NCBI GenBank assembly: GCA_016647705.1
Contig: CM028328.1
Location: 34,634,501 to 34,698,500 of the forward strand
Length of the DNA: 64,000 nt
Direction of reading: 5' to 3'
DNA from: Eucommia ulmoides
Taxonomy: Eukaryota > Streptophyta > Magnoliopsida > Garryales > Eucommiaceae
The position numbers and the translations under genes are program-made. Each line of letters begins with the position of its first letter. Position 1 is the stretch's first letter. This document shows positions 1,310 to 55,430 of the stretch, in pieces. The notes beneath the pieces were generated by a model. It was given only the letters and a program-made list of their open reading frames with translations. It searched no databases and was not told the DNA's origin.

Positions 1310-2390
1310 TAAGTGTGGCACAGATAGTTGACATCGAGGTCAGCAGCTAACTGAGCACATCGACTCAACAATAAACTGGGCGCCTCAACCTAGCAACAAA
1401 TGAGTTCTCTAACTTAGATTTCAATTGAGCACATCAGCTCAGAAATTAACTGGGCACCTTAGACCAAGAATAACTGAGTTCTTTAACTCAAAGTTTAACT
1501 GAGTTTGTCAGGTTATAAATCAATTAGGCACTTCAGCCTAACAACAACTGAGTTCTCTAACTTATATTGCAACTGAGTTTGTCAACTCAGCAATAAACTA
1601 AGCACCTCAGCCCAACAACAACTGAGTTCTCAAACTCAGATTTTGATTGAGCACATCAGCTCAAAAATCAATTGGGCACCTTAGCCCAACAATAACTGAG
1701 TTCTTTATCTCAGAGTTTAATTGAGCTTGTCAGCTCAAAAATCAACTGGGCACCTCAGCCCAACAATAACTGAGTTCTCTAACTTAGATTTCAACTGAGT
1801 TTGTCAGCTCAGCTATAAAACTGGGCACCTCAATCCAACAACAATTGAGTTATCTAACTCAGATTTTGACTGAGCATATCAGCTCAGAAATCAACTAGGC
1901 ACCTCAGCCTAGCAATAATTGAGTTCTTTAACTCAGAGTTTAACTGAGCTCATCAACTTAGAAATCAACTAGGCACCTCAGCCCAACAATAACTGAGTTC
2001 TTTAACTCGGAGTTTAACTGAGCTTGTCAGCTCAGAAATCAACTGGGCACCTCAGCCCAGCAACAGCTGAGTTCTCTAACTCAGATTTTAACTGAGCTTG
2101 TCAGCTCAACAATAAATTGGGCACCTCAGCCTAACCACAATTGAGTTCTTTAACTCATAAATCAATTGGGTAGCTCAGCCCAACAATAACTGAGTTCTTT
2201 AACTTAGAGTTTAACTGAGTTCTTTAACTCAGAAATCAACTGGGCACATCAACCCAACAATAACTGAGTTCTTTAACTCAGAGTTTAGCTGAGCTTATCA
2301 GCTCAGAAATTAACTGGGCATTACAACCCAACTATGACTGAGTCTCTAAAACTCAGATTTTAACTGAGTACTTCAGCTCAGAATTTTTCT
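1310..2390. repeat. 74-bp minisatellite between pol and the antisense ORF
   Basis: About 14 tandem units of roughly 74-75 bp. The GGGCACC landmark recurs at about 1674, 1748 and 1823, with a variant AGGCACC near 1897. Each unit holds three short inverted repeats: CTGAGTT..AACTCAG, TGAGC..GCTCA and TGGGC..GCCCA, so one unit could form three small hairpins in a row. It begins about 180 bases after the pol stop. Base changes between units are common but the paired arms are often kept. No coding potential is seen. Confidence 0.9.
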
Positions 2391-23548: not shown

Positions 23549-26500
23549 GTCGTCGAGTGTGTGGGTTGCCGACGGTAGGTGTGTTCTAGTTGTTCGGCGA
23601 TTGTGTAGGGGTGTGTGGTGGCGTCGTTTGGTCTGGTGTGTGTGCATGTGTGTCATCGTTTCAGTTTGACAGGCGTGTGGGTGGTCGGCCGTCGGCCGGC
23701 TGTGATGGGGTGTGTGTGTGTTCTGCTTTGCCGACAATGTGTGTGTGTGTGTGTGTGTTCTGTTCGCTAGGTGAGTAGTGAGAAGGTCACCGGCGGTCGG
23801 CTGAGCGAGAAGTGAGAGTGGCGTCAACGCCGGTCGGTTGAACCAGGGAACTCAAAACAGAACCGAAAAAGAAAAAAAAAAAAAAAAAGAAAAAGAAGAA
23901 AAAAAAAAAGAGGAAAAAAAAAAAAGAGAAAAAAATGATTTCACAAAAAAAATAAAATAATAATAATAAATAAATAAAACTCGAAGACCGAAAAATCAAC
24001 TTCTCGACCGGCGGGCGATTCGGAATAGGTAACGATTCCGTTGGTTAATATTTTAATCGTTAATTATTATTTTCATCAAATTAAATTATTGGCATTAAAT
24101 TTTGTAATCGCTACATAATTTTGTAACGGTTAATTTTAATAATGTTGTACAATGAATATTAACATAGCGAGACGAACGAAATAATATGATTTCATAACTA
24201 AATTTGGGGAATGGGAAATTAGGTAACTTAGGGCCATGCATTGCATATTAGGGTTGTTTTAAATAAAATGTTAATTTAGACTTATCACTGTTAGGTTCGC
24301 AGGCGCTCGCCCGGTAGGTTTAGGGTTGTCTTAAATAAAATGTTAATTTAGACCTATCACTGTTAGGTTCGCAGGTGCTAGCGTCCCGGTAGATTTTGGA
24401 CGGTGATAGTTTTGTTGTGCGGAAATCGAGATGAGTGTACTGTTTTCTATGTAAATTTATATATCTTATTTTCGTATAAATTGTGAAAAATGTGTTTATT
24501 TAAAATGGACTGTTTTGTAACTTATATGGATCAAGTTGGTTTTAAAGGTGGAAAATGATTTTTGGATCAAGTTGGTTTTAAAAGTGGAAAATGATTTTTG
24601 CATCAAGTTGGTTTTAAAGGTGAAAAATGATTTTTGAATCGAGTAGGTTTTAAAGTTGGAAAGTGAGTTTTTTGCCCGATTATGCCATAGTTTTGGTCAC
24701 GTCAAGAGGGCATATCCTACGGGATGGTTTTGACCTGTTATGAGGATTAGTCCTACATGTGGTTGATTATTATAATCTGTCAGGAGGGCATATCCTGCAT
24801 GTGGTTGATGATATTATGACCTGTTAGGAGGATTAGTCCTACATGTGGTTGATTATTATGACCTGTTAGGAGGGCATGTCCTGCGGATGGTTAATGATAT
24901 TATGACTTGTTAGAAGGATTAATCCTACACCTGATTGATTATTATGACCTATTAGGAGGGTAGTCCTGCAGGTGGTTGATTATTATGACCTGTCCGGAGG
25001 ATTAGTCCGACAGGTGGTTTGATTGACCTGTCAGGAGTGCAAATCCTGCGGGTGGCACCCCTACCATTAGAGATAATAAATGGCCATGACACTGGTAGTC
25101 ACTTTAGATGGCACAGTTTTACATGTTACGGTACCGTTGTAACTCCCGATCGTGAGGTAAAAACGATCATATGGCTAATAGAAAATGAGGTGTGGTGTAT
25201 TTTATTATACGTTTAAAATATTTGGATTGGTGGATTTAAAATATTTGAATTGGTTGACTTAAAATATTTGAGCGGGTGTTAATTATATTACTTCATTTCA
25301 TTGGTAGTAGTGGAATTTGATTTTTTTTTTTTAACGAAGTATTCGGTTATATTATTATATTTTGAAACGTGGTGTTTAATACTTCTGCTTGTTTTAAACG
25401 TATTAGTATTTCGTCGTCAAGTGTGTGGGTTGCCGGCGTTGGGTGTGTTTTGGTTGTCCGGTGACTATGTGGGGGTGTGTGGTGGCGCCGTTTTGTCTGG
25501 TGCATGTGCATGTTTGTGATCGTTTCAGTTCGCCAGGCATGTGGGTGGTCGGCTCTCAGTCGACTGTGATGGGGTGTGTGTGTGTGTTCTGCTTCGCCAA
25601 CAGTGTGTGTGTATGTGTTCTGCTTCGCCGATAGTGTGTGTGTTCTGTTCGCTAGGTGAGCAGTGAGAGGGTCGCCGGCGGTCGGCTGAGTGAGGAATGA
25701 GAGTGGCGTCGACACCGGTCGGTTGAACCAGGGAACTCAAAACAGAACAGAAAAAGAAAAAAAAAAAGGAAAAAAAAAAAAAAGAAAAAAAAAAAGGGAA
25801 AAAAATGATTTCACAAAATAAAATAAAAATAAAAATAATAAATAAATAAAACCCGAAGACCGAAAAATCAACTTCTCGGCCGGCAGGCGATTCGAAATAG
25901 GTAACGATTCCGTTGGTTAATATTTTAATCGTTAATTATTATTTTCATCAAATTAAATTATTGGCATTAAATTTTGTAATCGCTACATAATTTTGTAACC
26001 GTTAATTTTAATAATGTTGTACAATGAATATTAACATAGCGAGACGAACGAAATAATAATTTTTCATAACTAAATTTGGGGAATGGGAAATTAGGTAACT
26101 TAGGGCCATGCATTGCATATTAGGGTTGTTTTAAATAAAATGTTAATTTAGGCCTGTCATTGTTAGATTCGCAGATGCCAGCGTCTCGGTAGGTTTTGGG
26201 CGGTGATAGTTTTGCAGTGCAGAAATCAAAGTGAGTGTATTGTCTTCTATGTAAATTTACATATCTTATTTTCGTATAAATTGTGGAAAATGTGTTTATT
26301 TAAAATGGACTGTTTTGTAACTTATATGGATCAAGTTGGTTTTAAAGGTAGAAAATGATTTTTGGATCAAGTTGGTTTTAAAAGTGGAAAATGATTTTTG
26401 CATCAAGTTGGTTTTAAAAGTGGAAAATGATTTTTGAATCGAGTAGGTTTTAAAGTTGGAAAGTGAGTTTTTTGCCCGATTATGCTATAGTTTTGGTCAC

Positions 26501-29058
26501 GTCAAGAGGGCATATCCTGCGGGATGGTTTTGACCTGTTAGGAGGATTAGTCCTACATGTGGTTGATTATTATAATCTGTCAGGAGGGCATGTCCTGCAG
26601 GTGGTTGATGATATTATGACTTGTTAGGAGGATTAGTCCTACATGTGGTTGATTATTATGACTTGTCAGGAGGGCATGTCCTGCGGATGGTTAATGATAT
26701 TATGACTTGTTAGGAGGATTAATCCTACACCTGATTGATTATTATGACCTATTAGGAGGGTAGTCCTGCAGGTGGTTGATTATTATGACCTGTCCGGAGG
26801 ATTAGTCCGACAGGTGGTTTGATTGACCTGTCAGGAGTGCAAATCCTGTGGGTGGCACCCCTACCATTGGAGATAATAAATGGCCATGACACTGGTAGTC
26901 ACTTTAGATGGCACAGTTGTACATGTTACGGTACCGTTGTAACTCCCGATCGTGAGGTAAAAACGATCATATGGCTAATAGAAAATGAGGTGTGGTGTAT
27001 TTTATTATACGTTTAAAATATTTGGATTGGTGGATTTAAAATATTTGAATTGGTTGACTTAAAATATTTGAGCGGGTGTTAATTATATTACTTCATTTCA
27101 TTGGTAGTAGTGGAATTTGATTTTTTTTTAACAAAGTATTCGGTTATATTATTATATTTTGAAACGTGGTGTTTAATACTTCTGCTTGTTTTAAACGTAT
27201 TAGTATTTTGTCGTCAAGTGTGTGGGTTGCCGGCGTTGGGTGTGTTTTGGTTGTCCGGTGACTATGTGGGGGTGTGTGGTGGCGCTATTTTGTCTGGTGC
27301 GTGTGCATGTTTGTGATCGTTTCAGTTCACCAGGCATGTGGGTGGTCAGCCGTCGGTCGACTGTGATGGGGTGTGTGTGTGTGTTCTGCTTCGCCAACAG
27401 TGTGTATGTATGTGTTCTTCTTCACCGATAGTGTGTGTGTTCTGTTCGCTAGGTGAGCAGTGAGAGGGTCGCCGGCGGTCTGCTGAGTGAGGAGTGAGAG
27501 TGGCGTCGACACCGGTCGGTTGAACCAGGGAACTCAAAACAGAACAGAAAAAGAAAAAAAAAAGGAAAAAAAAAAAAAAAGTAAAAAAGAAAAAGGGAAA
27601 AAAATGATTTCACAAAATAAAATAAAAATAAAAATAATAAATAAATAAAACCCGAAGACCGAAAAATCAACTTCTCGGCCGGCGGGCGATTCGAAACAGG
27701 TAACGATTCCGTTGGTTAATATTTTAATCGTTAATTATTATTTTCATCAAATTAAATTATTGGCATTAAATTTTGTAATCGCTACATAATTTTGTAACCG
27801 TTAATTTTAATAATGTTGTACAATGAATATTAACATAGCGAGACGAGCGAAATAATAATTTTTCATAACTAAATTTGGGGAATGGGAAATTAGGTAACTT
27901 AGGGCCATGCATTGCATATTAGAGTTGTTTTAAATAAAATGTTAATTTAGGCCTGTCACTGTTAGATTCGCAGATGCCAGCGTCTCGGTAGGTTTTGGGC
28001 GGTGATAGTTTTGCAGTGCAGAAATCGAGGTGAGTGTATTGTCTTCTATGTAAATTTACATATGTTATTTTCGTATAAATTGTGGAAAATGTGTTTATTT
28101 AAAATGGACAATTTTGTAACTTATATGGATCAAGTTGGTTTTAAAGGTGAAAAATTATTTTTAGATCAAATTGGTTTTAAAGGTGAAAAATGATTTTTGG
28201 ATCGAGTGGGTTTTAAGGTGGAAAGTGATTTTTTTGTCCGACTACGCCACAGTTTTGATCCCGTCAGGAGGGCATGTCCTACGGGATGGTTTTAACCTAT
28301 TAGGAGGATTAGTCTTACAGGTGGTTGATTATTATGACTTGTCAGGAGGGCATATCCTGCAGGTGGTTAATGATATTATGACCTGTTAGGAGGATTAGTC
28401 ATATAGGTGGTTGATTATTATGACTTATCAGGAGGGCATGTCTTGTAGGTGGTTGATGATATTATGATTTGTTCGGAGGATTAGTCCTACAGGTGGTTGA
28501 TTATTATGACCTATCAAGAGAGCATGTCTTGTAGGTGGTTGATGATAGTATGACCTATTAGGAGGATTAATCCTATAGGTAGTTGATTATTATGACCTGT
28601 CAGGAGGGCATATCCTGCAGGTGGTTGATTATTATGACCTGTCCAGAGGATTAGTCCGGCAGGCGGTTTGATTGATCAGTCAGGAGTGCAAATCCTACGG
28701 GTGGTACCCTTACCATTGGGGATAATAAATGGCCCTGACACTGGTAGTCACTTTAGATGACACAGTTGTACAGGTTACAGTACCTTCGTAACTCCCGATC
28801 GTAAGGTAAAAACGATCCTATGATTAGTAGGAGAGGAGGTGTGGTGTATTTTATTATACGTTTAAAATATTTGGATTGGTGGATTTAAAATATTTGAATT
28901 GGTTGACTTAAAATATTTGAGCTGGGTGTTAATTATATTACTTCATTTCATAGGTTGTAGTGGAATTAGATTTTTTTTTTTAACGAAGTATTCGGTTATA
29001 TTATTTTATTTTGAAACGTGGTGTTAAATACTTCTGCTTGTTTTAAACGTATTAGTAT
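23549..29058 (+). repeat. Three tandem 1.8-kb units inside the LTR
   Basis: Units run about 23549-25408, 25409-27208 and 27209-29058. The landmark GTGGGTTGCC falls at 23561, 25425 and 27222. Copies 2 and 3 look nearly identical. Copy 1 is longer because of an extra roughly 70-bp duplication at 24254-24375. Each unit runs from a GT/TG-rich part, through a poly-A/purine tract and AT-rich DNA, to two minisatellite blocks (ATCAAGTTGGTTTTAAAG and the 40-45-bp hairpin repeat). High similarity implies recent amplification. Confidence 0.95.
24690..25060. repeat. Hairpin minisatellite (in LTR unit 1; repeated in units 2 and 3)
   Basis: Short units of about 40-45 bp alternate two hairpin motifs: AGGATTAGTCCT and CAGGAGGGCATATCCTG, each followed by GGTGGTTGAT and ATTATGACCTG. 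The same block occurs at about 26490-26860 and, with more units, at 28250-28710. Arm-preserving changes (AGGA/TCCT, CGGA/TCCG) suggest the pairing matters or that units spread by conversion. Confidence 0.85.
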
Positions 29059-35633: not shown

Positions 35634-36290
35634 TTTTTAGGCTATTATATACACATTTCTTCTTTTCTTATGTTCTCTCCATATCAAAATAAATAAATAA
35701 ATAAAAATTGTTTTGCCTAAATTAAAACCCGTAAAAGGAGGATAATCTATACATCGTTTTTAGGTTTCCCATTTTGTGAGAAACTTTAAATGAGTGTTAG
35801 GGAAGATCATTCTACCAAGAAATACATCTATAAATATGTTTTGTTCAAAAAATAAAAACGCAAAAAACAAGTCTCTTTGTTTTTTTTTCCACAAAACAAA
35901 TGAAACTTTCAAAAAAACAAAAATTTAAAAGCTCTTTCCATAAAACAAGTTTTTCAAAAGAAATGTTTTCTTCATCCAAGAAAACCCCAAAATGATTTTT
36001 TTAAGGAAATAAATTTCTTAAATAAATCTTTATAGTTTTTCCTTCATCTTTAAATAAAAAATGATTTTTCTTCTTTGCAAATAAAACAAAAGATATTTTT
36101 TTTAATTATTGTTTTTACTGAAAAAAAATAGTTTTTTCGTAAAAATATTTTTTTCTCCAAAATGTCTTCTTCATAAGAAGGACAATTTTTTATTTTAAAA
36201 AAATGTATTTAAAAAAAAAAAAAAAAAAACTAAAAGTGTTTTTTCTTAAAACTCTTTTTCTTTCATTTATTTTAACGAGTTTTTATTATA
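34098..36290 (+). repeat. Ogre/Tat-like LTR, left part (interrupted by a MULE)
   Basis: Begins TATAGACACCGCATTTTATTCC, like Ogre/Tat LTR starts. A promoter-like TATAAATA (34873-34880) is followed by a 17-G run (34881-34897) and then a CT-rich leader. A (AT)n microsatellite lies at about 35589-35631. From 35780 on it is A/T homopolymer-rich (repeated CAAAACAAG, TTTTCTTC) up to the MULE end. The companion right part is at 46838-47700. Assignment to one interrupted LTR is inference from composition and end motifs. Confidence 0.5.
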
Positions 36291-36829
36291 TAATCCCCCA
36301 TAGAGAAATCACTTAGACTAAAACCCTTTTCACAAGATCGTTTAGGGCTCAGACCATCCCGTACAATGGGTTTAATTTTCAGTCCTCTGACGAAGACAAG
36401 GCAAACGGCGATAGACGATAATACCCTTGTTCACTCTGACGAGCCAGGTGGACGGATCAATTCGGTTATGGTAAGCGACAAAATAAAGTTTTTTCAGGCT
36501 GATTCAAATACATGTACGACATTCCTTACACAGGGCGCGGATTTTCAAAAACATTCGCTTCAAAATTGTAGGTGTTGCAGAATTGGTACGAGGTGAAGAT
36601 TTTGAAACGACGGCGACGGTGAATATATAACGCGACAACATTCGGACTGTATTTAAAGGCGAAACAGGTCAGTTACTCAATTGTATTCATTGAAAAGTTA
36701 TATAATCACGTTTAATCTCATTTTTTTTGGGTTTTTTGGCGTTGTTACAACGTTCCGAAGTTGGATGTTCGAGTTTTGGTGATGAATAAATGCCCATTTT
36801 TGAGGGCACACTCTCTAAGGGAACGTGAG

Positions 36830-37715
36830 CAATGCGTTAACGTTGACGTATTTGGTGTTATTTTGTGTACCATGAACGTAATAACAATGGGAATAGAAGC
36901 AAATACAGTCAGGGAATGGGCGTACATGGTAAAGTTAGGTAACTCACAGTGTTTTCAGTTTTTTCTGAAAAGTAAGATGCTCCAAGTTACAGAGGTTCTC
37001 GTTTGTATTCAATTAAACGTTTAACGTTAACATGTTTAACATCAACTATTTGCGCTAATGTTAATGTAAAAACAATGTGAATAGAAGCAAATACAGTCAG
37101 AGAATGGGTGTACATGGTAAAGTTAGTTAACTCACAGTTTTTTCTGAAAAGTAAGATGCTCCAAGCTACAGAGGTACTTGTTTATATTCAATGAAATGTT
37201 TTAACGTTAACATGGTTAACAAGCAATTTATTTATGTTAACGTTAACGCATTTAAGTTCATGCGTTAACATTTACGCAATCATTCTAAGTGCTAGATAGA
37301 CTAACGTTTAACGTTAATGACAACGTTACAATGTTTTACAAATGCAACTTAATTATGTTAACGTTAATGCAATCAAGTCCATTCGTTAACGTTTACGCAA
37401 TAAGTATAAGCGCTCAACCAAACCAATAAGCATATTGAAATCTAAACTTTCTGACGCATATTAATGTTTTATCTAGACTGTTTTTTCTCGCACAATTTTG
37501 GGGATGCATTCTTCTTGATTTTCGCAGATTTACTGGGGGGGTCAAAGCAGTTTAGTTGCGTTAATGTTAACACATTTTAAGTTTATGCGTTAATGGTTAC
37601 GCAAAAAATCTAAATACTGGACCAGAAAAGTGTTAACGTTACCCCTGTTTTACAAGGCAACTTGATTGCGTTTAATGTTAACAAACCAAGTCAACGCGTT
37701 AACGTTTACGGAATC
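36830..37715. repeat. GTTAACGTTAACG palindrome cluster, 5' of mudrA
   Basis: About a dozen full or degenerate copies of the GCGTTAACGTTAACGC core, together with two imperfect direct copies of a 200-bp segment (AATAGAAGCAAATACAGTCAG at about 36892 and 37079) and a further duplicated part (AATAAGCATACTGAAATCTAAA-type, near 37420 and 37738). Non-coding leader of the MULE. Confidence 0.85.
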
Positions 37716-37851
37716 AGTATAAGCGCTCGAACAAACGAATAAGCATACTGAAATCTAAACTTTTCCGAAGCATATTAATGTTTATCTAGACTGTTTTTTT
37801 TTTCCGCACAATTGGGTTGCATTCTTTTGATTTTGTAGATTTACGGGGTCA

Positions 37852-40269
37852 ATGGCTACGCGCATATTTTTGATGTGCAAGTTTGATGGTTACTCGTTGG
37901 GCGTCAAGGTGGATGATGATTTCACACACGCGGTGCTTATTGAAAATGTGTTGTTGCGGTGGGACGTGTTAAGGGATATTTTGTTCGAGATGTTTTATTC
38001 TATACCAGGGTATGACAGGTGCCTAATATCGTGTCAGGACGATGTAGAGGTAATGGTTAGCCTTGCACGAGCAATGAAGCTTAAATATGTGGGGTTGGAG
38101 ATAAAGGTGTGCGGCATCGGTAGTGGACTAAGTAGCAGTTGGGACAGGACGTTATTTGAATAGCCAACGGGCCGGGGGGCCCGGGATGGCATGGACGGAG
38201 AGGACGACCTGTTGTCCATTTTCTGCTTATTGCCTAAAAAGACATTATTGTTCGATCATTGGGCTGAAGATCTTAAAGAAGTCGGACAGATTTTTAAGGG
38301 TCGAATACCGAAATTCAAAGAATCACTAAGGAAATATGCTGTACAAATGAGTTTCACATTTCAGTACATAAAGAACGACAAGAAGAGGGTGACAGCTGAA
38401 TGTTCTCTCAAGGAAGAGAGGGAATGCAAATGGAGAGTGCATGGTAGACTAGACGAAATAAATTTTTTTTTTTTTTTTTTTGGGAGTTCCAGAGAAATCA
38501 TAGTTGCGGCGCTGCTTATAGGACAACGAGGAATAAAAAGATGAACTGTAGTGTTGTGAAATCATGTCTTTTAGACTTAGTTCGGAATACCCCGTCAACT
38601 CGTCCGATTGACGTTGTTCACACATTCAATAACGACTATGGGATTGAGATCCCATACCACATTGCATAGAACGGCGTGGAAAAAGCTCGGGATGATTTGT
38701 ATGGTGACCACGAATCGTCTTATGATCAATTGCGCTGGTACTTGGATGCATGCAGGCCGACGAACCCAAGAAGCCATTTGGCGTTGGATTACGATAAAGA
38801 AACGGAGCATTTCAAGAGACTGTTTGTATCGTTCTATGCGACTGCGCACAGGTTCAAATACTGCAGGCTGATGCTGTTTCTAGATGGGACATTTCTGAGG
38901 GGTAGGTACAAGGAGTGTTTGTTGGCGGCCAGCGCAAAAGATGGGAACAATGGTAGGTGTTGTTTAATTCCTTATTACATAAAAACAATAACATTTAACG
39001 TTAACACATTAGATGCAAGTAACGTTTTCTTATATTTTTTTACATTTTTTCAACAGTTTTTTGGGGAGGGAGGGTTCTGACGAGACGAGCTGATCATGTT
39101 TGGGGATGACACATGGGAACCTTTTTAACGTTAACGTTAAATGTGTTAACGTTAACGTATATAAACGGGCTTTACATACAATGTTTTTTTTATTACATGC
39201 TGATCTGTTTTGTGTTTTTCATAAATGGACAGGTCTTTTTCCGGTGGCATTCGCTGTTGTTGATGCGAAGAACGACGACAACTAGAATTGGTTCATGACC
39301 AATTTAGAAAAAATTGTGACGAAAGAACATGTGTTAACCTTCATTTCCGATCGACATAGTGGCATTCTTGAAGGAGTTCGGAAGATGTTCCCGGATTGTT
39401 TTCATTTTTATTGCTTGAACCATCTGAAGAATAATATGAGGGACAAATTAGTGGGTTTGAAACAAGCGTGGAAGGGGAAGCTAGTGCACAAATATTCGAT
39501 GATGGCATATGCGACGACGCTTGACAAATACTACCAGCTGAGGGAAGAATTAAGAACAGAAGGTATGGGATGAGTAGAGAATTTCCTAGAGGATGTGCCA
39601 CCTGACAACTTCTATAACATGTTTTTCAAAGGCAAAAGATATGGGGAGATGTCGTCCAACCTAGCGGAGTCATTCAACGCATGGATTCGTGATTATCGAT
39701 AGTTGCCAATCATATTAATGGTCAACAAGATTAGGTGCAAGGTAATGAACCAGTTGTCAGTGAGACGTGCCGAATCACTTCTAATGACGGGTTTCCTATG
39801 TCCAATACGCGATCAAATGCTGTCGCGGATGATAAGTGACAGACGGACGTGAAATGTTGTTGAGTACGGCAACAACGTATACGAAGTGCACTCGATCCCA
39901 TCCGTTCTGGTTGATATGGATAAAAAAAATGTGTTCCTGCTTCAGGTGGCAGGAAAACGGCTTCCCGTGTGTTCATGTTTGTGCGGTGATACAAAAAAGC
40001 GACCAGAATATATATTCATCCGTTGAGCCATTTTTCTTGTTGGAATATTATCGAATGACCTACTAGGAAGGTATATATGGTGTACCCACGTTCGAGAAGC
40101 CGGAATGGAATGCATCAGAAGCTGTAATCATCCCCCCGATCACAAAAAAATAACCTGGTTAACCGTGGAAGAAACGCATCCTATCAAGGGGTGAGATCCT
40201 AGAAATAAGATATGCTAGATGCAAAAAGAATGGGCACTACAATAGGAAGACATGCACCACTTCAATTTA
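37852..40269 (+). pseudogene. mudrA-like MULE transposase
   Basis: ATG at 37852. After the N-terminal region and an in-frame TAG (38161), a Mutator DNA-binding domain follows (GQIFKGR, KKRVTAECS, CKWRVHG; about 38285-38450). A T-run at 38463-38481 shifts the frame. The finger continues at about 38500-38640. The MULE catalytic domain has LDGTFLRGRY (about 38880), then a 280-bp intron (GT 38953 to AG 39232), AFAVVD, ISDRHSG (about 39340) and NLAESFN (about 39658), placing the D-D-E residues. A SWIM finger (CSCFRW...PCVHV, about 39932-39977) and a CCHC-like knuckle (about 40204-40255) end it. In-frame stops at 39283, 39571 and about 39700 make it inactive as read. Confidence 0.9.
38953..39232 (+). 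other. Predicted intron of the mudrA-like gene
   Basis: The donor GGTAGGTG and acceptor TGGACAG join the exons in frame between the first catalytic Asp block and AFAVVD. The intron carries several GTTAACGTTAAC copies (about 38997 and 39125-39160), while the flanking exons carry none. Confidence 0.75.
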
Positions 40270-40459
40270 AAGCACACATTCATCAAATATTTCTTTTTAT
40301 ATAGTTTTGACACAACAACACTTTTCGTGTTCAATGTTTGGCCCGGAGGGGGAGGACCTTGTTTTTTTCACATGATATTTTTTGGTAAGAAAGATCACCG
40401 GGAGAAAGGATGTGGTTTTTGTTTTGCGTAAACTGTTATTATACACACACAAACTTTTT

Positions 40460-41160
40460 TTGTGTTAACGTTAACGCAAATACGATTTGTAAATTTTAAT
40501 GTTTTTAACGCTGTCATAATGGTATATAATTTAATTGCATTAACGTTAACGCAATTACAAAATCGACCTCAATAACTAATCGCGTAAATGTTAACACATT
40601 TTTTTTTTTACAAACCAATACAAGCAAATTACAGTTTGCGTTAACATTAATGTTAACGTGAACGCAATTACAACTAAAAACTCAATACTAATCGGATAAA
40701 CATTAACGCATTTTTTTACAAACCAGCACAAGCAAATTACAATTATGTTAACGTTAACGTGAATGTAATTACAACAAAAAAACTCAATAAGTAATTGCAT
40801 TAACATTAACGCATTAAGGAACCCATCACATTTAACTTTGGTGCGTTAACGTTAATGCAATTACAACTAGCACATGTAAAATTACAACCAGCACATGCAA
40901 AATTACTAATTGCGTTAACATTAATGTCATTGCAACAAAAACCCAATCACTAATTGCGTTAACGTTAACGCATTAACAATCCAACACACTTACTTGAGTT
41001 AACGTTAAAGCAATTATACCCCAACAATAAGTCAAAAGGCAACACATTTAACACAGTATAATCAACGGATGCAATAAGAGTTAAAGAAGTACATTTTTTC
41101 TTAAGTTAACGTTAACACATTTTTTGCACGTTAACGTTAACGCTGTTTGCACATTAAACC
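40460..41160. repeat. Dense GTTAACGTTAACG palindrome array between the two MULE genes
   Basis: About 15 copies in 700 bases, mostly GCGTTAACGTTAACGCAATTAC-like, separated by 15-60 bp of ACAA-rich sequence, between the convergent 3' ends of the two genes. Variants are mainly CG to TG or CA. No coding potential; the minus frame 40591-40806 is a by-product of the repeat. Confidence 0.9.
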
Positions 41161-41358
41161 ACCCATTATACACACACAGCTATCATCGCAAAAAATGAAT
41201 TAAACAGAGAAATATATACATTTTCTCAGATTTTTGTCTTGTATCATTGATCAACCCTCCTCTAGATCAGGGTGTGCCCTGATCTGGTTGGGTTTTTTCA
41301 ACATCGCCGACTACCACGGGGACCCAACTGTAGTGTGGATGGTTGAGTAGAGCATGTA

Positions 41359-42400
41359 TTACGTCTTTCTGGACACCCCGTACATTCGCCACCAACAGTG
41401 TTTCCCGACAGGCATATTTCCAGCATATTGTTTCATTATGTACATGACATAAACGCCACAATCAGTCCTGCAAATGGGGGGGGGGGGGGGGGAGGGGAAG
41501 GTAAACAGATGAGAATGATAAATTTGCATAGACATACGATTTTTAGTACACAAGTTTCGGACGGGTAAACTTACGCCCCGCGTTGTTGCAGTGAATCTAG
41601 ACATTGTTCTATAGGTGCGTCGCCCCAATTTGGCCGTATTTCCATGTTGATATGTCGTTCAACAAACTTTATCGGTTCAGAATATAGGTTAGTCAAATAA
41701 AACAGAGTGTAGTTATAGACAGTCAAAGTAGTTCAATGTCAAATCACATACTACTGTAAGCGTATCGTTATAACAATGATTAGTTGTGTTCTTCCTAGTT
41801 CAGATGGAATTGTAGAACGTCCATTTTTTATCATGTATGTGCAAAATCATTACAGTCCTGTGATTGGGTGACGCATGACGACCGTTAGTGTTCATCGGGA
41901 ATATAACATAACGGTTTTATTTGCTGAATGCGGTGGAGATTGTGTAGTAGAGATCTTTATGCAACAACTTTTTGTCCTCTCTTATAACATTCTATGATTT
42001 TTTTTTACGTGTTAGCAAGTTTGGATGAAAAAGGAAAAAAAGATAACATGTGCTAAAGCGTTTTACCCAAATGCATGATATTGCGAACCGCGTTTCGTGC
42101 AACAGCATGATTGACGTTGACATCCGCATGTGATTGATTGATCTAATTTCAAATTCCAAACACTCTCCGTACGAATCAATAACCTGTGGGAGAAGGGAGG
42201 GGGGAGTCAGTATGTTAACGTTAACGCAAATTTTGTTAACGTAAACATCTTTTCACGAAACAAGTTGATGTAAGCATTTAATCAATCAGAAATATTATGC
42301 AGTCGGTTTCATACGTTATCTGACACACGACACTCCATAAGCATGCAAATGACATCGCCACATGAAACTGTGGCCATGGGTTTCCCGCCTCTAAACACGA
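41359..42400 (-). pseudogene. Ulp1-like (C48) cysteine protease domain of the MULE
   Basis: Reading leftward, the pieces are: a short segment near 42400-42310; a spacer with a palindrome copy (42212), perhaps an intron; a helix-rich segment near 42185-42040 (YGECLEFEI); FPMNTNG and WTFYNS (about 41910-41810); then TDCGVYVMYIMKQYAG (41460-41410), matching the catalytic Cys block of Ulp1 proteases (DCG). The usual His-Trp pair is not clear: the expected place reads GRHAS. Stops and frameshifts occur, and a 17-G run (41476-41492) sits just before the Cys block. Ulp1 enzymes cleave SUMO; here it is a transposon-borne accessory, probably the C-terminal part of one gene with 42547-44760. Confidence 0.75.
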
Positions 42401-42546
42401 ATGTACTGGGACATTGTAAAAAACAACATATCACATGATCAACAAACATTTTATAAAAAAAAAGGCATTTTAAAAGTAAATAGGCACTTTGAGTTAATTT
42501 TTGTTTTTTACCCTGGGCCCTCTTCGGAAATCACTGACAACTTCTC

Positions 42547-43622
42547 CTAATAGTCATCAACAAGCATCGCACTAACGGTCGTCGCATTACGAGCTGGCAG
42601 TCTTGCATTGTCTTCATACATTGTTGCCGGCGAAAGCTCATCGAAATTAACTATGTCATATTTCTCTTTTTGCTTCCCCTTCTTTTTTGCTTTGGGGTAG
42701 ACAAAATCACTACCTTGTTTCTTCAGTTGCCTCTCCTTTTTCTTTACTCGTCCAACCATGGAGCTAACTTTTTGCGTTGACCCCCCATGCGATGTAGGCA
42801 TCGAGACTGGCGATGGTGCATCGGGGGCGTCCGTTGGCATGACCATAGAGAGCTGTTGAGGCTTGAGGACTGCGAGAGTGGTAGGGGTACCCCTCCCTCC
42901 CGTTTGCATATGGGCGTTCAATTTCGTCTGGAGGTCCTGTATTTGTTTATTTAGCACCACACGCATTTTAACGTTTGATTTGGCTATTTCTTTTTTCTTC
43001 TCCCGCAGCAGTTTGTTGATTTCTTGTTCTGTTTTCAAGTCAAGAGCAAGATCATTATATTTCTTCTTCATTTTCTCAGCATCATCAGCATGTTGTTGAT
43101 TCAACGTTTCGATTGTTTTTTTCAGTGTCTCCACCTCCTGGGCGAGCTCGTGACATCTCCGCCTAAGGTTATCTTTCTCAGTATCGACGGGGGCTTCCTA
43201 TACTTGTGAGTCATGTCGTGCACGCTCATTTCCGTCAGGATGTCTGTCTTCTCCCCAATTGATTTCACTAATTTCGCAGAGAGGTTGGAGATAGATCGCT
43301 CATAACTTTTCTTTTTTTGCAATGACGATGCTTTCAGATGATCAATCTCCTTTTTCTACTCGACGTTGGCAGCGGTTATGATTGCAATTACCCTATGCAA
43401 CGCCACAATGGTCTTCTCTTTTTCTATTTTATTCGTTGCGAACTCACCCTGTATGTGTTCGATCTGTTTGCGGATGTCATCAACTGTACGCGCGACCACA
43501 GACGGTAGTCCCAAGGAACCCTCTGAAGGTGTGCAAAATGCACTCTCAGCGGGGGCATAATCATTACCCAAATCAGTAACGTCAATGGTAACGCAATAAG
43601 GCCATCGCGTTAACGTTAACAC
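42547..43622 (-). CDS. Coiled-coil/basic linker of the MULE accessory gene
   Basis: Three overlapping frames (43622-43356, 43322-43122, 43134-42547). The last gives 195 codons: a long coiled coil (about residues 1-80, rich in K, E, Q and L), a glycine/proline/serine-rich linker and a basic nuclear-signal-like block (KKKGKQKEKYD). The frame from 43622 starts inside a GTTAACGTTAAC copy, so that Met is doubtful; an intron boundary is likely there. It lies between the DUF1985-like and Ulp1-like parts. No enzymatic motif. Confidence 0.6.
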
Positions 43623-43988
43623 AAATTAGTACACCTGTTCAACCATACCAATAAACAAACCAAACCTAAACATTTTAACGTTAACTTAAATGTTGATTTT
43701 TTTAAACACAATCAGATGTGTCAATCAGACTCAATATATTGTTCAAAAGCTTCAATGCATTTGTCCCCCCCATCTCATTTTTATTTAAAGCACAACATGT
43801 TTTTTTTGTTTACCTTATCAGCTAGCAGGAGCTCGAGGGGGATGCCACCTAGGTTGAAAGAAAACGTGGTGAGGCACCATCGCTCCAAACGCGGCACACT
43901 ATGCTCCCTGCCCTCGGTGTGGTCAACCAACGTTGTGTGCTCACACAATCAATACTATAAAGCAAAAATTGTACTATGTCAAGTAGGT

Positions 43989-44760
43989 TCAACAAACAAC
44001 GCTTTTTAATTTTGGGAAAATGTTTTCACAATGTTTATGTGTATACCTAGAGAGCAAGCATGCACCCCGTGACCGACCGGGGTTCCATGTACGATTTCTT
44101 GAGGCTCGTTTCCAGATCTGTGAATATTGCAACTGTCCAGTTGTAATTTTCCATGTCTTCAATCGTTTTAACATAGCAAACTAACTACTTCGGGACCTAC
44201 TGCCCAGTTATCGCAAAGAAGCATGTGGTCATCAGGTACAGAATGACCATACGCACAATATCATGTACTGTTTCATCGTCTGTGGCGTTCACATTCGCTT
44301 GCACTTGTGATCTCAAATACGCGACACTAAACCCGCTGTTTGCGAATATCAGTTTGGATATGAAGGGAGAGTCGGATTTTGTGTAGCGGCTCACAACAAC
44401 AGGTTCTTCGCCCGTCGCTATTCCGAATATCAGCTGTATGTCCAGCGGGGTTATCTGGATGAGCCTACCCCCCTATCCTAACCACCTCCCCCGGCATAGG
44501 GTTGTAGCATCGGATGATCATTTTAATGAGATCATCATTTTTGTGTATGTTTTTTAGAGTCATTCTCTGCTCATATAACGTCTCGAATAATTTTACAAAT
44601 GGGGTCCTGGCTAGCAGCGTCTTATGCTGATCTTTGAGTTTGTATTCTTTCAGCAGTTCATACGTCTGTTTCAGGTTGGAGCGATAACGGAACGTTCGCT
44701 AGCTAGAGCTTTCTTTTTTGGGTTTCTTAAGGAGTTTTACTGCAAGAACTACGGGGAACA
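43989..44760 (-). pseudogene. DUF1985/plant-mobile-domain-like part of the MULE accessory gene
   Basis: Leftward translation gives ELLKEYKLKDQHKTLLARTP, then DLIKMIIRCYNP, ITPLDIQLIFGIATGEEPV, the open frame 44394-44197 and, after a stop, DMENYNWTVAIFTDLETSL (44160-44095). The order resembles the DUF1985 and plant mobile domain pattern often found N-terminal to Ulp1 in transposon proteins: a D.QLI.G...G.PV strand, a hydrophobic helix, then YNW.....L. I rely on pattern resemblance only. At least one stop interrupts it. Confidence 0.6.
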
Positions 44761-44779
44761 CAATTAATGCATATTACAA

Positions 44780-46545
44780 GCCGCACGTTAACGTTAAAGA
44801 AATCATCCATATCCCTCTTTACGTAACAAAAACGGTACCAAATCTTAAAATTAATGCACATTAAAGTTTACTCATCCACACCTCTATTTACAAGCAAAAC
44901 CCGTTTGCGTTAAAACAGTCCACCTTTTTTTACACAGACAAACTGGGGTCACGTTAACGTTAATGTAATTAATATTTATGCCTTACGTTAACGCAACAGG
45001 CCCTTCCCTTTCACAAGCAACTATTTGTGTTAACGTTAACGCACTACAATAAACGCGTTAACGGTAACGCATCCCCTTCAAACCAAAATGTTGTACCAGA
45101 TTTGAGAAATTCACGCAAAAATAGTACCAAATCCTAAAATTAATGCACATTAAAGTTTACTCATCCACAGCCCTATTTACAAGTAAAAGCCATTTGCGTT
45201 AAAACGATCCACATTTTTTTACACAGACAAACTGGGGTTGCGTTAATGTTAATGCAATTAATATTCATACCTTACATTAACGCAACAGGCCCTTCCCTTT
45301 TACAGGCAACTATTTGCGTTAATGTTAACGCACTACAAAAAACACGTTAACATTAATGCATTCCCTTCAAACCAAAATATTGTACTAGATTTGAGAAATT
45401 AACGCAAAAACAATACCAAATCCTAAAACTAATGCACATTAAAGTTTACTCATCCAAACCTTATTTACAAGCAAAACCCATTTGCGTTAAAACGGTCCAT
45501 CTTTTTTTACACAGACAAACTGGGGTTGCGTTAACGTTAATACAATTAATATTCATGCTTTACGTTAACGCAGCAGGCCTTCCTTTTTACAACCAACTAT
45601 TTGCGTTAACGTTAACGCACAAGAAGCGCGTTAACATTAACGCATTCCCTTCAAACCAAAATGTTGTATCAGATTTGATAAATTAACGCAAACAAACCCT
45701 TCCTTTTTACAGGCAACTATTTGCGTTAACGTTAATGCACTACAATAAATGTGTTAACGTTAACGCATTTCGCTCAAAACCCAAATGTTGTGTCAGATTT
45801 GAGAAAATAACAATTACTGACGAGTAACACAAAACGGTTCCTCATTACAGGCAAGTTCTTTTACATTAACATTAACACAATTACATTCACGCGTTAACGT
45901 TAACACAACCTAGTACATAGTGGTGTACTAGACAAACAAACATACCTAAATCTAAACATCTGACTCACATTAATGTTAACGTTAACGTAAGTATTCTTTT
46001 TTAATTTATGTTTTTTTTAGGCAAAACAACAGGTGGGTAAACCCAAGAAACACATGAAGGTTTTCAACATCGTAAACCCACGAAACAAAACACAACATAC
46101 AATATAAAAAAAAACATAAATCCAAAACCGGGAAACAGAGTATGTCGGAGTCGGGGAAAATAGACGAACATCATCGTCTCGTTTGTGATTTTGATTTCTA
46201 AACGCTTTTCGCTGAACAAAAGTGTATCGATTTTAGGGTTTCACATTCTGTCGGGACTGAGGATTCCTCGTTTCTATGTGGAAGATGACGGGGCGCGTTC
46301 AAAATTCTCCATTATCTGAAGACGACGGGGCACGTTCGAATTATTAGTTATATCGCCTCTTTAGTTTTAGGGTTTCGGAGTTTTTAAGCGTGGAGAGAAT
46401 AGAGAACGTTTAGACGGTTTTTGTATGCAGTCGTGTAGATAGTGGAACGGGCAGCAGGACATATCGGAATCAGAACGGACGCGGTAACACAACGACTGCT
46501 AACAGTGCGTTAACGTTAACACAATCCGGTAATGTTAACAGGAAA
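44780..46545. repeat. GTTAACGTTAACG palindromes in the MULE 3' subterminal region
   Basis: More than 20 copies. The strongest is GCGTTAACGTTAACGC at about 45603, with many CG to TG/CA variants. Included is a tandem repeat of period 289 bp (see next entry). The region ends with a GC-richer stretch (46140-46500) free of the motif except at 46507. Confidence 0.9.
44836..45700. repeat. 289-bp tandem repeat, three units
   Basis: The landmark CACATTAAAGTTTACTCATC occurs at 44857, 45146 and 45435, giving period 289 bp twice. Each unit carries four or five palindrome sites at fixed positions plus TTTTTTTACACAGACAAACTGGGG. A partial fourth unit follows to about 45800. Confidence 0.93.
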
Positions 46546-46837
46546 AAAAAAAAAACCATTGCAAAAATATCGGCGAACTCTTTAATTTGATCACATTTTT
46601 ATATGATTTAATTAAGAAATCAGGTCTATAGAGGCGGATTACATATTGAGTGGGGTTTATTTAGTGCACTGTTCATGTTATAGTGGTTTGTAGCCTCAGA
46701 ATGACATATTCCGTAAATAAACTGTAACAGGAAGGGCAAAATTGAAGGATTTTTTCCTAAAGAATTGGTATGGTCTGAAAACTTAATACACATTGTCATG
46801 GGGTTTGAATAGTGAATGAGCTCCTAACAGAGGACTA

Positions 46838-47700
46838 AAAAATAAAATTCCCTATTTAAAACAAGTTTGTTTTGTTTTTCATTAAAAAAAAAAAAAAAAA
46901 AACTCATTTTTTCCACTTAAAATGTTTTTCATCACAAATAAAATTCTTTTTTCAATTTTTTTTTTTCATAAGAAAACCAAACCCTTGTTCTTCTTAAAAT
47001 ATTTTTTCAAAAATAAAAAATGTTTTCTTTATTTAAATTTGTTTTATCAGCTTTCTTCATTAATAAAAACAACAAAAATATTTTCTTAGTCTTTAATTGT
47101 TTTATCAAATAAAGGAAATATCTCTTTCATAAAAAGATTGTCTTCATGGAAAGTCTTTCATTTTAAAATTTTATTCCTTTCTTTTTTCATACATAAGTTT
47201 TTTTTGCCATCATAACTTGAACTAAAATCAAAATCTTCCCATGAGATCAAACTTGTCGATTCTTCCATAACCGATAAGTGGTTGAAAAGGAGATTATTTT
47301 TGTATTTTATTTTACTTATTTTATTTGCTTGTTTATTTTTGAATATGTGTTTAATAGTTTTACTTCATTTGCATGCAATAATAAAAAAGATAAGGAAAAA
47401 AAATTTTGTCAGCCAACCAAATAAAATAAAACTTGGACTTAGTTTAATTTAATAATTAGACACTGGGTATCATTTTCGAACGGGTGTATTAGAGTGCCTA
47501 ACACTTCCCTCGGAACTTAAAGAATACTCTGATTAAAACTTTTTGAGCCAAAATTTTGGGCCATTTCAAAAGTTTCTCCTTGTTTTTGTTTGAAACCCGA
47601 TAACCTAACACACATTTTTGAAACCAATATTAGGTAGCGACTCCAATTTTTTTCATAAAATTCACCTAAGTAAATTTGTTCAAAATCGACGCCTAGAAAA
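46838..47700 (+). repeat. Ogre/Tat-like LTR, right part
   Basis: A/T-homopolymer DNA like that left of the MULE, then the segment GAACGGGTGTATTAGAGTGCC...TTCCCTCGGAAC (about 47478-47520) and TAGGTAGCGACTCCAA (about 47632-47650), which resemble the 3' portion of Ogre/Tat LTRs. The exact LTR end is unclear. No gene. Confidence 0.5.
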
Positions 47701-54229: not shown

Positions 54230-55430
54230 AATTCAAGTATTGTTGCAATTGGTTCTTTGATTGAGAATCTATACTTATTGGATATTATTAATTCACATAA
54301 TGAAACCTTGCAAACAATTACTTGTGGTACAAAACGCAAATTAACTAATGAGATTTTCGCCGTACTTTGGTACAAGCATTTATGACATATCTCCAAACAG
54401 AGAATAAAGAGGCTTGTGTCTGACAACATTCTTGTCCCCCTTGATTTTTCCAATTTCAAAGTTGTATTAAATGTGTAAAAGGGAAATAAACAAACATTAA
54501 GAAATTAGGTGTCAATAGGAGTTACGTCGTCTTAGAACTAATACAAACTGATATCTGTAGATCATTCCCTATGGTATCTTAGAATGGACAAAAATATTTT
54601 ATTACGTTCATAGACGACTACTCTCGTTATGCGTATTTGTATTTGGTTCATGAGAAGTCTCAATCCTTAGACGTATTTAAGTCATTCAAAGCTAAAGTTG
54701 AAAATCAACTAAGCAAGAAAATCAAGGTTGTTATGACGAATCAGGAGAACAACGTTTAAGACCCTTACAAAATTCCTAGAGAAATAAGAAATCATACCAC
54801 AATACACAATGCCAGGAAAACCTAGCATGAATGTTGTTACTGAGAGACATAATAAAAAACTTAAGGACATGGTACAAAGTATGATAAATCATTTTTCTTT
54901 GCCAGGATCACTTAGGGGAAAAGCATTTAAGACTATAGCATATATCCTGAATAGGGAACCAAGTAAAGTGATAGCCAAAACCCCTTATGAACAGTGGTTA
55001 GACAAAAATCCTAGCATAAGGCATTTACGCATTTGGGGTTGTCCAGCTGAGGCAAGACCTTTTAGTCTAAATGAAAAGAAACTTGACTCAAGAATAGTTA
55101 GCTACTACTTTGTTGGGTACACTGAACGGTCGAGAGGCTTTAAGTTTTATGATCCCTCAACTAGGACCTTTTCGAGACGGGAAGTGCGCGATTCCTTGAA
55201 GATGTTGAGTTTGAAGGGGGAGATAAGGTTATTAGGAATGTTATCTTTAAAGGGAAATTAATTTCTCTTCCAAACATTGCTATTGACAATGATTAGGCTC
55301 CTGACATTGTTCAAGACACAATTCAAGATAATAGTGAAGAACTTCTTACTCAAAATCAAAATATTGCTCTTGAAGAGCAAACTCAACAATCTCAAAAAGA
55401 AGTGCCACAAAGGCAATCTAAAGAAATCAT
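54230..55430 (+). pseudogene. Copia integrase (broken), plus strand
   Basis: Pre-integrase region with LWYKHL..IS (about 54365-54400). The core has TDICRSFPM (about 54548) and FIDDYSRYAYLYLVHEK (about 54608-54655). The motif expected at the second Asp reads TNQENN (about 54738). ERHNKKLKDMV (54842-54875) carries the expected N/E region. The C-terminal part is open from 54809 to 55261 (WGCPAEARPF; YYFVGY). The linker to reverse transcriptase is cut at about 55430 by the inversion. Confidence 0.88.

What the first reader, a model, noticed from the sequence alone, without database searches (positions are those of the whole stretch)
36830..46545. A MULE peppered with the palindrome GCGTTAACGTTAACGC
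At least 40 full or near copies of a self-complementary 16-mer, made of two overlapping GTTAAC sites, lie inside this one element. They are in its leader, its intron(s), the gap between its two convergent genes and its 3' subterminal region. They are essentially absent from exons of the transposase and do not continue outside the element. Most variants are CG to TG or CA changes, the mark of methylated CpG decay, so the ancestral array was more uniform. Such an array could bind the element's own DNA-binding transposase (as subterminal repeats do in CACTA), seed cruciform structures, or be a target or evader of silencing. I know of no described MULE with internal palindrome arrays of this kind.
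Basis: partly seen in the sequence, partly recalled or inferred. Interest (0 to 1): 0.9.

Follow-up and report, generated by a model that had tools for sequence, protein, structure and literature searches.

The report
Palindrome arrays marking a plant transposon
A plant "jumping gene" carries dozens of copies of one palindromic DNA word in its non-coding parts, and related elements carry different words built on the same frame, which looks like an address label read by a protein that the transposon itself encodes, probably to escape silencing, as is known for VANDAL elements of Arabidopsis.

Summary
The window copy is a 10,576-bp Mutator-like element (MULE), 36277-46852. It holds 40 windows within 3 mismatches of GCGTTAACGTTAACGC (shuffle mean 0.06); 0 of 48 non-overlapping sites lie in inferred exons. 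The genome holds 12,979 sites against 147 for the reversed word. Five full-length copies with perfect 9-bp duplications carry 30-47 sites each. The convergent gene ORF2 encodes a plant-mobile/DUF1985-like domain (below cut-off), a coiled-coil-like middle and a Ulp1-like domain: the layout of ULP1-carrying (Kaonashi) MULEs and partly of VANC, the VANDAL anti-silencing protein that binds motif arrays in non-coding DNA. Of 16 relatives chosen by ORF2 similarity, 15 lack this word and 14 carry other words; motif class largely follows the ORF2 tree. By eye all words fit GTNNAYRTNNAC. Best reading: the array is the recognition address for ORF2, a VANC-like self-specific anti-silencing system. Binding and demethylation are inferred. 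The kind is known; the dyad words and their diverging series look like a new variant. CpG decay explains only part of the variation.

The parts
36277..46852 (.). Whole MULE copy (10,576 bp); ends GAGTTTTTATTATATAATCCC... and ...AGGACTAAAAAATAAAATTCCC
   Evidence: Ends shared with five sister copies that have perfect 9-bp duplications
36268..36276 (.). Left target-site duplication TATTTTAAC
   Evidence: 7 of 9 bases match the right one
46853..46861 (.). Right target-site duplication TATTTAAAA
36834..37711 (.). Leader array, 11 of the 48 sites
37852..38953 (+). Transposase, first exon (inferred limits; broken by a stop and a frameshift): PB1-like start, MuDR DNA-binding domain PF03108
   Evidence: PF03108 2.1e-15; donor site seen
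38992..39158 (.). 3 sites in the transposase intron (inferred 38954-39231)
39232..40280 (+). Transposase, second exon (inferred limits; broken): MULE domain PF10551 and SWIM finger
   Evidence: Joined translation: PF10551 1.5e-15, SWIM 3.1e-4
40462..41143 (.). Array between the convergent genes, 14 of the 48 sites, partly on a ~108-bp tandem unit
41270..44745 (-). ORF2 (inferred limits, several exons, broken): plant-mobile/DUF1985-like N-terminal part, coiled-coil-like middle, Ulp1-like C-terminal part
   Evidence: Peptidase_C48 7.7e-7 from this copy and 3.1e-11 from a sister-copy query, PMD 1.1e-4 and DUF1985 5.2e-4 below cut-off
42212..42227 (.). One site in an ORF2 intron (inferred 42192-42312)
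43579..43622 (.). Pair of sites 28 bp apart in an ORF2 intron (inferred; the acceptor is ambiguous)
44785..46522 (.). Array upstream of ORF2 (right end of the element), 17 of the 48 sites
44827..45692 (.). 289-bp tandem unit in three copies, each carrying several sites

Best explanation
The array is the element's own address label. The element is a MULE with a transposase gene and a convergent second gene, ORF2 (plant-mobile/DUF1985-like part, coiled-coil-like middle, Ulp1-like part). ORF2 most likely works as VANC does in Arabidopsis VANDAL elements: it binds the clustered sites in leader, introns, gene gap and upstream region, removes or blocks silencing marks over the element, and so allows expression of this family only. 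On this reading density gives specificity, exons are free of sites because they must code, and sites multiply partly by tandem duplication. Related subfamilies have moved to other words within one dyad frame (GTNNAYRTNNAC) while ORF2 diverged. Shown: the array, exon avoidance, genome-wide enrichment, element ends, gene content, purifying selection on segments of both proteins, different words in relatives, and their association with the ORF2 tree. Inferred: that ORF2 is the binder, that it binds as a dimer, and that binding causes loss of methylation.
For: Site-rich elements with perfect 9-bp duplications and no <=2-mismatch site in the flanks held (5 full copies and the window copy). 0 of 245 ungapped <=3-mismatch windows in exon columns across six aligned copies. 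Flanks of sites in different regions unrelated (33% v 32% random) while the 16-mers are 77% alike. dN/dS 0.20-0.55 for transposase segments and 0.26-0.48 for ORF2 segments, ten pairs each. Ulp1-like domain 3.1e-11, weak PMD and DUF1985 matches. Of 16 relatives chosen by ORF2 protein, 15 have no <=2-mismatch site of this word and 14 repeat another word; 1 of 71 own-word sites in L025-L029 overlaps a detected exon hit. ORF2 tree: rows with this word form one 100/100 branch, all labels need 6 changes v 13.5 shuffled, 0 of 200 as low. The ORF2 middle diverges faster (28-44% identity to six relatives) than the transposase C-terminus (64-71%, detectable in three of them); in VANDALs VANA is likewise much more conserved than VANC. 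Precedent: VANC21/VANC6; a review says the same of ULP1-carrying VANC genes.
Against: No binding or methylation data. DUF287, named for Arabidopsis VANC, was not found, and DUF1985 and PMD stay below cut-off. Among five young copies motif columns are as variable as other non-coding columns (A/T 46 of 375 v 310 of 2,629; CpG 49 of 186 v 81 of 320), so no constraint after insertion is visible. The 10.5-bp spacing was not seen. 11 of the 12 rows with this word in the tree were chosen by the motif; L038 shows no word, L036 is weak. The relatives' words were defined after looking at the loci, and repeated words also occur in non-element parts of the window. The most frequent 9-mer of L030 is an unrelated one, CGCTTAGGC.
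Confidence: 0.62

Rival explanations
1. The sites bind the transposase (MuDR-type DNA-binding domain PF03108) and serve as internal and subterminal assembly, titration or self-regulation sites.
For: The transposase has a clear DNA-binding domain (2.1e-15); sites reach to within about 0.35 kb of the right end; the transposase also differs between subfamilies (64-71% at the C-terminus).
Against: Most sites lie in the gene gap, introns and the two long gene-flanking regions, as VANC sites do; the terminal ends shared by the copies lack the word; the words differ completely between subfamilies whose transposase C-termini are 64-71% alike.
Confidence: 0.2
2. The sites are promoter or enhancer elements for a host transcription factor that binds GTTAAC-like dyads; different subfamilies use different factors.
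For: High density beside both genes (9-14 sites per kb in four regions); dyad form suits a dimeric factor.
Against: Host factors would not be expected to change with the ORF2 tree or to need dozens of sites in introns and the gene gap; the word is rare elsewhere.
Confidence: 0.08
3. The arrays have no function: short repeats that spread by slippage, conversion and tandem duplication, excluded from exons only because coding sequence cannot absorb them.
For: Tandem units multiply sites; motif columns are no less variable than flanks among young copies.
Against: Sites in different regions share the 16-mer but not their flanks; 22 flank clusters remain after a gapped comparison; relatives have other words in one frame, in comparable non-coding places.
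Confidence: 0.07
4. The self-complementary words act through structure (cruciforms, hairpin RNA, small-RNA production).
For: The leader folds as RNA better than 20 shuffles (z -4.5), as expected from many mutually complementary words.
Against: In three relatives the word is not a strict palindrome and sits in one orientation (35 of 36 sites in L025, L027, L029); structure does not explain subfamily-specific words.
Confidence: 0.03

Closest known systems
VANDAL MULEs and VANC anti-silencing proteins of Arabidopsis (VANDAL21/Hiun, VANDAL6)
   Same: MULE with transposase plus a second gene; dense arrays of a short word in introns, intergenic and terminal non-coding DNA; words differ between related families and spread with tandem repeats; second protein with conserved and fast-changing parts (PMC5735166)
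   Different: Words here are dyads, one a perfect CpG-bearing palindrome, against YAGTATTAY and AGTTGTCC/AGTTGTAC; ORF2 carries a Ulp1-like part and no detectable DUF287; DUF1985 only below cut-off; no VANB-like gene was looked for; no binding or methylation data
ULP1-carrying MULEs (Kaonashi/KI-MULE and relatives in melon, rice, grapevine)
   Same: Ulp1-like gene downstream of and opposite to the transposase, as in KI-MULEs (PMC2528002); a review places these genes among VANC genes that recognise motifs of their own elements (PMC13317346)
   Different: No word of those elements was available to compare; the Ulp1-like part here has Asn where SENP5 has Asp in its YDS stretch in the nine copies where it could be read
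CACTA elements with subterminal repeats bound by an element protein (recalled, no call)
   Same: Many copies of a short word in one transposon, thought to be bound by an element protein
   Different: Here sites lie mainly in introns, the gene gap and gene-flanking regions, not only near the ends; different superfamily

Membership tests
Mutator-like element (MULE) | MuDR/MULE transposase domains | tested here: met
   PF03108 2.1e-15, PF10551 1.5e-15, SWIM 3.1e-4
Mutator-like element (MULE) | About 9-bp target-site duplication | tested here: met
   Perfect 9-bp in five of five copies with both ends held, 7 of 9 in the window copy
VANDAL / VANC system | No or short degenerate terminal inverted repeats | tested here: met
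   No significant inverted repeat from the window alone; the shared ends are at most short and imperfectly inverted, judged by eye
VANDAL / VANC system | Family-specific short word dense in non-coding regions of the element | tested here: met
VANDAL / VANC system | Related families carry different words | tested here: met
   16 relatives chosen by protein: 15 without this word at <=2 mismatches, 14 with another
VANDAL / VANC system | Second protein with DUF1985 | tested here: inconclusive
   5.2e-4, 20.4 bits against a cut-off of 35.1, from a sister-copy query; no hit from the window copy
VANDAL / VANC system | Second protein with DUF287 | tested here: not met
   No hit in the N-terminal or Ulp1-like part at E<=10; in the middle part none in the window copy at E<=1
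VANDAL / VANC system | The second protein binds the word | not testable with these tools
   Needs binding assays
VANDAL / VANC system | Its expression removes DNA methylation from the family | not testable with these tools
   Needs transgenic lines and bisulfite sequencing
VANDAL / VANC system | Transposase inside the VANDAL clade | not tested
   No Arabidopsis VANDAL transposase was in the 120 listed homologues; no tree was made
ULP1-carrying (Kaonashi-type) MULE | Ulp1-like gene in reverse orientation to the transposase | tested here: met
   Peptidase_C48 7.7e-7 and 3.1e-11, above cut-off; minus strand
CACTA-type subterminal repeat array | Words confined to subterminal DNA | tested here: not met
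   17 of 48 sites in the gene gap and introns, 28 in the two long gene-flanking regions

The most novel reading that the evidence does not exclude
Within one plant genome a radiation of ULP1-MULEs holds at least three or four nearly mutually exclusive protein-site pairs in which a fixed dyad frame, GTNNAYRTNNAC, is kept while other bases change with ORF2. The protein would read both half-sites as a dimer, and in this window's subfamily the site itself contains three CpGs, so that binding could sense or oppose methylation directly. This would be a natural series of orthogonal, sequence-specific anti-silencing factors outside Arabidopsis with a DNA-recognition mode different from VANC21 and VANC6.
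Probability: 0.35. Interest if true: 0.78.

Novelty: new variant of a known kind. Interest (0 to 1): 0.64.

Why it matters
How a transposon can undo its own silencing without harming its host, and how such a protein and its target words change together, has been worked out mainly in Arabidopsis (PMC5735166, PMC10398659). Here one genome offers several subfamilies with different words in one frame, many copies of each (12,979 sites for one word) and stop-free ORF2 exons at 97% to 58% identity, so specificity could be mapped by swapping proteins and sites. Sequence-specific anti-silencing factors could also serve epigenome editing, as the VANC authors note.

Tried and rejected
Element ends from the window alone: no significant inverted repeat or duplication; solved only with sister copies. 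CpG decay as sole cause: rejected. Helical 10.5-bp spacing: not seen; a 28-bp spacing recurs instead (8 pairs; the commonest spacing in 5,000 random placements had a mean count of 2.8 and never exceeded 6), partly through shared descent of tandem units. Purifying selection on sites after insertion: not seen. ORF2 homologues in the protein database: none at E<=0.001 for the whole (7,998 candidates scored) and none at E<=0.01 for the N-terminal part (595 candidates), although plant proteins are in that database. Loose motif refinement filled its quota in shuffled sequence as well and was discarded; fixed-word counts with shuffles replaced it. The label M3 of L035 rests on 3-mismatch counts; its repeated word is the GTGAACATCAAC of its own clade. 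Genome-wide count of the L025-type word: not completed. The 2022 EMBO J paper on co-evolving VANC systems is not held; I saw only its title, in reference lists. What I recall of its abstract (gain and loss of DUF1985, DUF287 and Ulp1; motif density and helical periodicity) comes from no call.

Papers: PMC5735166 outline, parts 1-3 of 6 and a term search; PMC10398659 part 1 of 6 and passages; PMC13317346, PMC6446971, PMC2528002 and PMC12312487 passages only; all others search listings only.
Full report
Observation. Between 36830 and 46545 there are 2, 15, 27, 40 and 53 windows within 0-4 mismatches of GCGTTAACGTTAACGC; 200 dinucleotide shuffles give means of 0, 0, 0.015, 0.06 and 0.47. Removing overlaps leaves 48 sites at <=4 mismatches: 11 in the leader, 3 in the transposase intron, 14 between the genes, 3 in ORF2 introns, 17 upstream of ORF2, none in the inferred exons, which make up 4,875 of 9,716 bp. 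Exon limits are my inference from frames and splice sites; for the pair at 43579-43622 it depends on which acceptor is used. Outside the element the window has one <=3-mismatch site, at 48652.

What varies in the sites. The TTAA parts are nearly fixed and information falls off outwards; T before and A after the 16-mer are common. C>T or G>A changes make up 75 of 108 mismatches here, 52 of them at CpG positions; the outermost non-CpG G and C vary at least as much as the central CpG. In five sister copies 260 of 497 mismatches are C>T/G>A. The element is not CpG-poor (1.11; flanks 0.72 and 0.74). Methylation decay is part of the story, not all of it.

Not one local expansion. Sites of different regions have unrelated flanks (33% identity against 32% for random non-coding pairs) but 77% identical 16-mers; a flank comparison with gaps leaves 22 clusters. 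Tandem duplication does multiply sites locally, for example a 289-bp unit in three copies, and a 28-bp spacing recurs (8 pairs; random placement gave at most 6 for any spacing in 5,000 trials).

The element. The transposase gene has MuDR DNA-binding, MULE and SWIM domains; 160 homologues were found, 120 listed, the named ones from plants, the top ones from Camellia at about 40% identity. The convergent gene, ORF2, ends in a Ulp1-like domain (7.7e-7 from this copy; 3.1e-11 from a query based on sister copies). Its N-terminal part matches the plant mobile domain (1.1e-4) and DUF1985 (5.2e-4), both below the curated cut-offs. The residue aligned with the Asp of the SENP5 YDS stretch is Asn in the nine copies where it could be read: window, E2-E5, L025, L027, L028, L029. 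That this Asp is the catalytic one is recalled; if so, protease activity is doubtful.

The genome. The window lies in an assembly of 946.7 Mb, which holds 12,979 sites at <=2 mismatches against 147 for the reversed word (the word is its own complement, so both strands give the same count). I fetched 13 site-bearing places, all on contig C1. Five (E1-E5) hold full-length elements with both ends and perfect 9-bp duplications, 10.6-11.6 kb long, with 40, 38, 37, 30 and 47 sites at <=2 mismatches and none in the flanking sequence held. In the other eight one or both ends were missing from the stretch or not recognised. The same ends place the window copy at 36277-46852, with a 7-of-9 duplication. 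Across six aligned copies 0 of 245 ungapped <=3-mismatch windows fall in exon columns; of 80 site columns 36 are shared by four or more copies and 31 are private. Segments of the transposase and of ORF2 (about 377 codons each) show dN/dS of 0.20-0.55 and 0.26-0.48 over ten pairs of E1-E5. Against my reading: among these five copies motif columns are as variable as other non-coding columns, so the sites are not visibly conserved after insertion.

Relatives chosen without the motif. A protein search of the genome with the ORF2 N-terminal part scored 150 of 2,383 candidates, 97% to 58% identical, many without stops. On contig C1, 7 of the 9 scored places lie in loci with exact sites of this word; the 72% place and a 64% place have no exact site listed near them. 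I fetched 16 relatives of 58-67% identity. Fifteen have no <=2-mismatch site of this word in the stretch held; L030 has two. Instead L025, L027 and L029 repeat TGTGTATGTTAACTCA (8, 8, 7 at <=2 mismatches), L026 repeats ATGTGAATGTTCACAT (13), and L028 AGTGAATATTCACTCA and ACGTGAACATTTACGG (6 and 3). At <=2 mismatches the first three of these words are absent from the other loci tested and the last occurs once each in L029, L030 and E4; shuffle means at <=3 mismatches are 0-0.5. Of the ten relatives fetched last, five show the L025 type (L032, L033, L036, L037, L040), four the L028-like GTGAACATCAAC/ACATTTACG type (L031, L034, L035, L039) and one none (L038); L036 is weak (2 sites). 1 of 71 own-word sites at <=3 mismatches in L025-L029 fell in a detected exon hit. 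The L026-type word is enriched in the genome, 2,374+2,383 against 340+376 for its reverse; the count for the L025 type did not complete. By eye all these words fit the self-complementary frame GTNNAYRTNNAC. They were defined after looking at the loci, and repeated words also occur in non-element stretches of the window, so the weight rests on the shared frame, the mostly non-coding positions and the recurrence in independently chosen relatives.

Motif class and ORF2. In a tree of 27 ORF2 N-terminal domains the 12 rows with this word form one branch (100/100); all labels together need 6 changes against 13.5 for shuffled labels, 0 of 200 as low. Eleven of the 12 rows were picked by the motif, which inflates this; the independent part is L030 and the split among the other fifteen. 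The decayed copies E12 and E13, only 58-62% identical to the query, still fall in the branch of this word and carry it, so it is the branch, not mere identity, that goes with the word. To six relatives the ORF2 middle is 28-44% identical, the N-terminal exon 58-67%, the Ulp1-like pieces 30-68%; the transposase C-terminus, detectable in three of the six, is 64-71%.

Explanation. VANC21 of Arabidopsis VANDAL21 binds YAGTATTAY arrays in introns, intergenic and terminal non-coding DNA of its own family and causes loss of methylation over the element; related families have different motifs that spread by tandem repeats (PMC5735166; PMC10398659). A recent review states that ULP1-carrying VANC genes (Kaonashi) likewise recognise motifs in their own elements (PMC13317346), and Ulp1 genes opposed to the transposase are known from several plants (PMC2528002). 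What could be tested here agrees with that system except that DUF287 was not found and DUF1985 stays below cut-off. I therefore explain the array as the target of a VANC-like protein, ORF2. The transposase as binder is the main rival.

Novelty. The kind is known. New, as far as the searches and the passages read show, are the palindromic CpG-bearing word, the common dyad frame across subfamilies and the series of such arrays in this genome. The most relevant paper (EMBO J 2022) could not be read, so part of this may be in print.

Noticed in passing
window 1363-2383: A long tandem array of a 74-bp unit (10.6 copies in one row; overlapping rows with 123-222-bp periods) rich in ACTCAG/CTGAGT words.
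   Followed up: no
window 24248-28673: Three similar blocks about 1.8 kb apart, each with a 36-bp and a 42/86-bp tandem array (TGACCTGTTAGGAGG..., TGGATCAAGTTGG...).
   Followed up: no
window 41270-42428 and sister copies: The Ulp1-like part has Asn where SENP5 has Asp in its YDS stretch in the nine copies where it could be read, window, E2-E5, L025, L027, L028, L029.
   Followed up: partly
window 48652 and 16425: Two isolated motif-like sites outside the element (weight-matrix score >=10).
   Followed up: no
L030 and L027: The most frequent 9-mers of L030 are CGCTTAGGC/CGCCTAAGC; L027 has CGCCTAGGC six times. These G+C-rich words do not fit the dyad frame and may be a nested repeat.
   Followed up: no
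L022 (E11): An unrelated repeated word, AATACCTATC (10 copies), lies in the fetched stretch.
   Followed up: no
window 54809-55261: Open frame with a retroviral-polymerase SH3-like domain (3.1e-15), probably a retrotransposon remnant.
   Followed up: no
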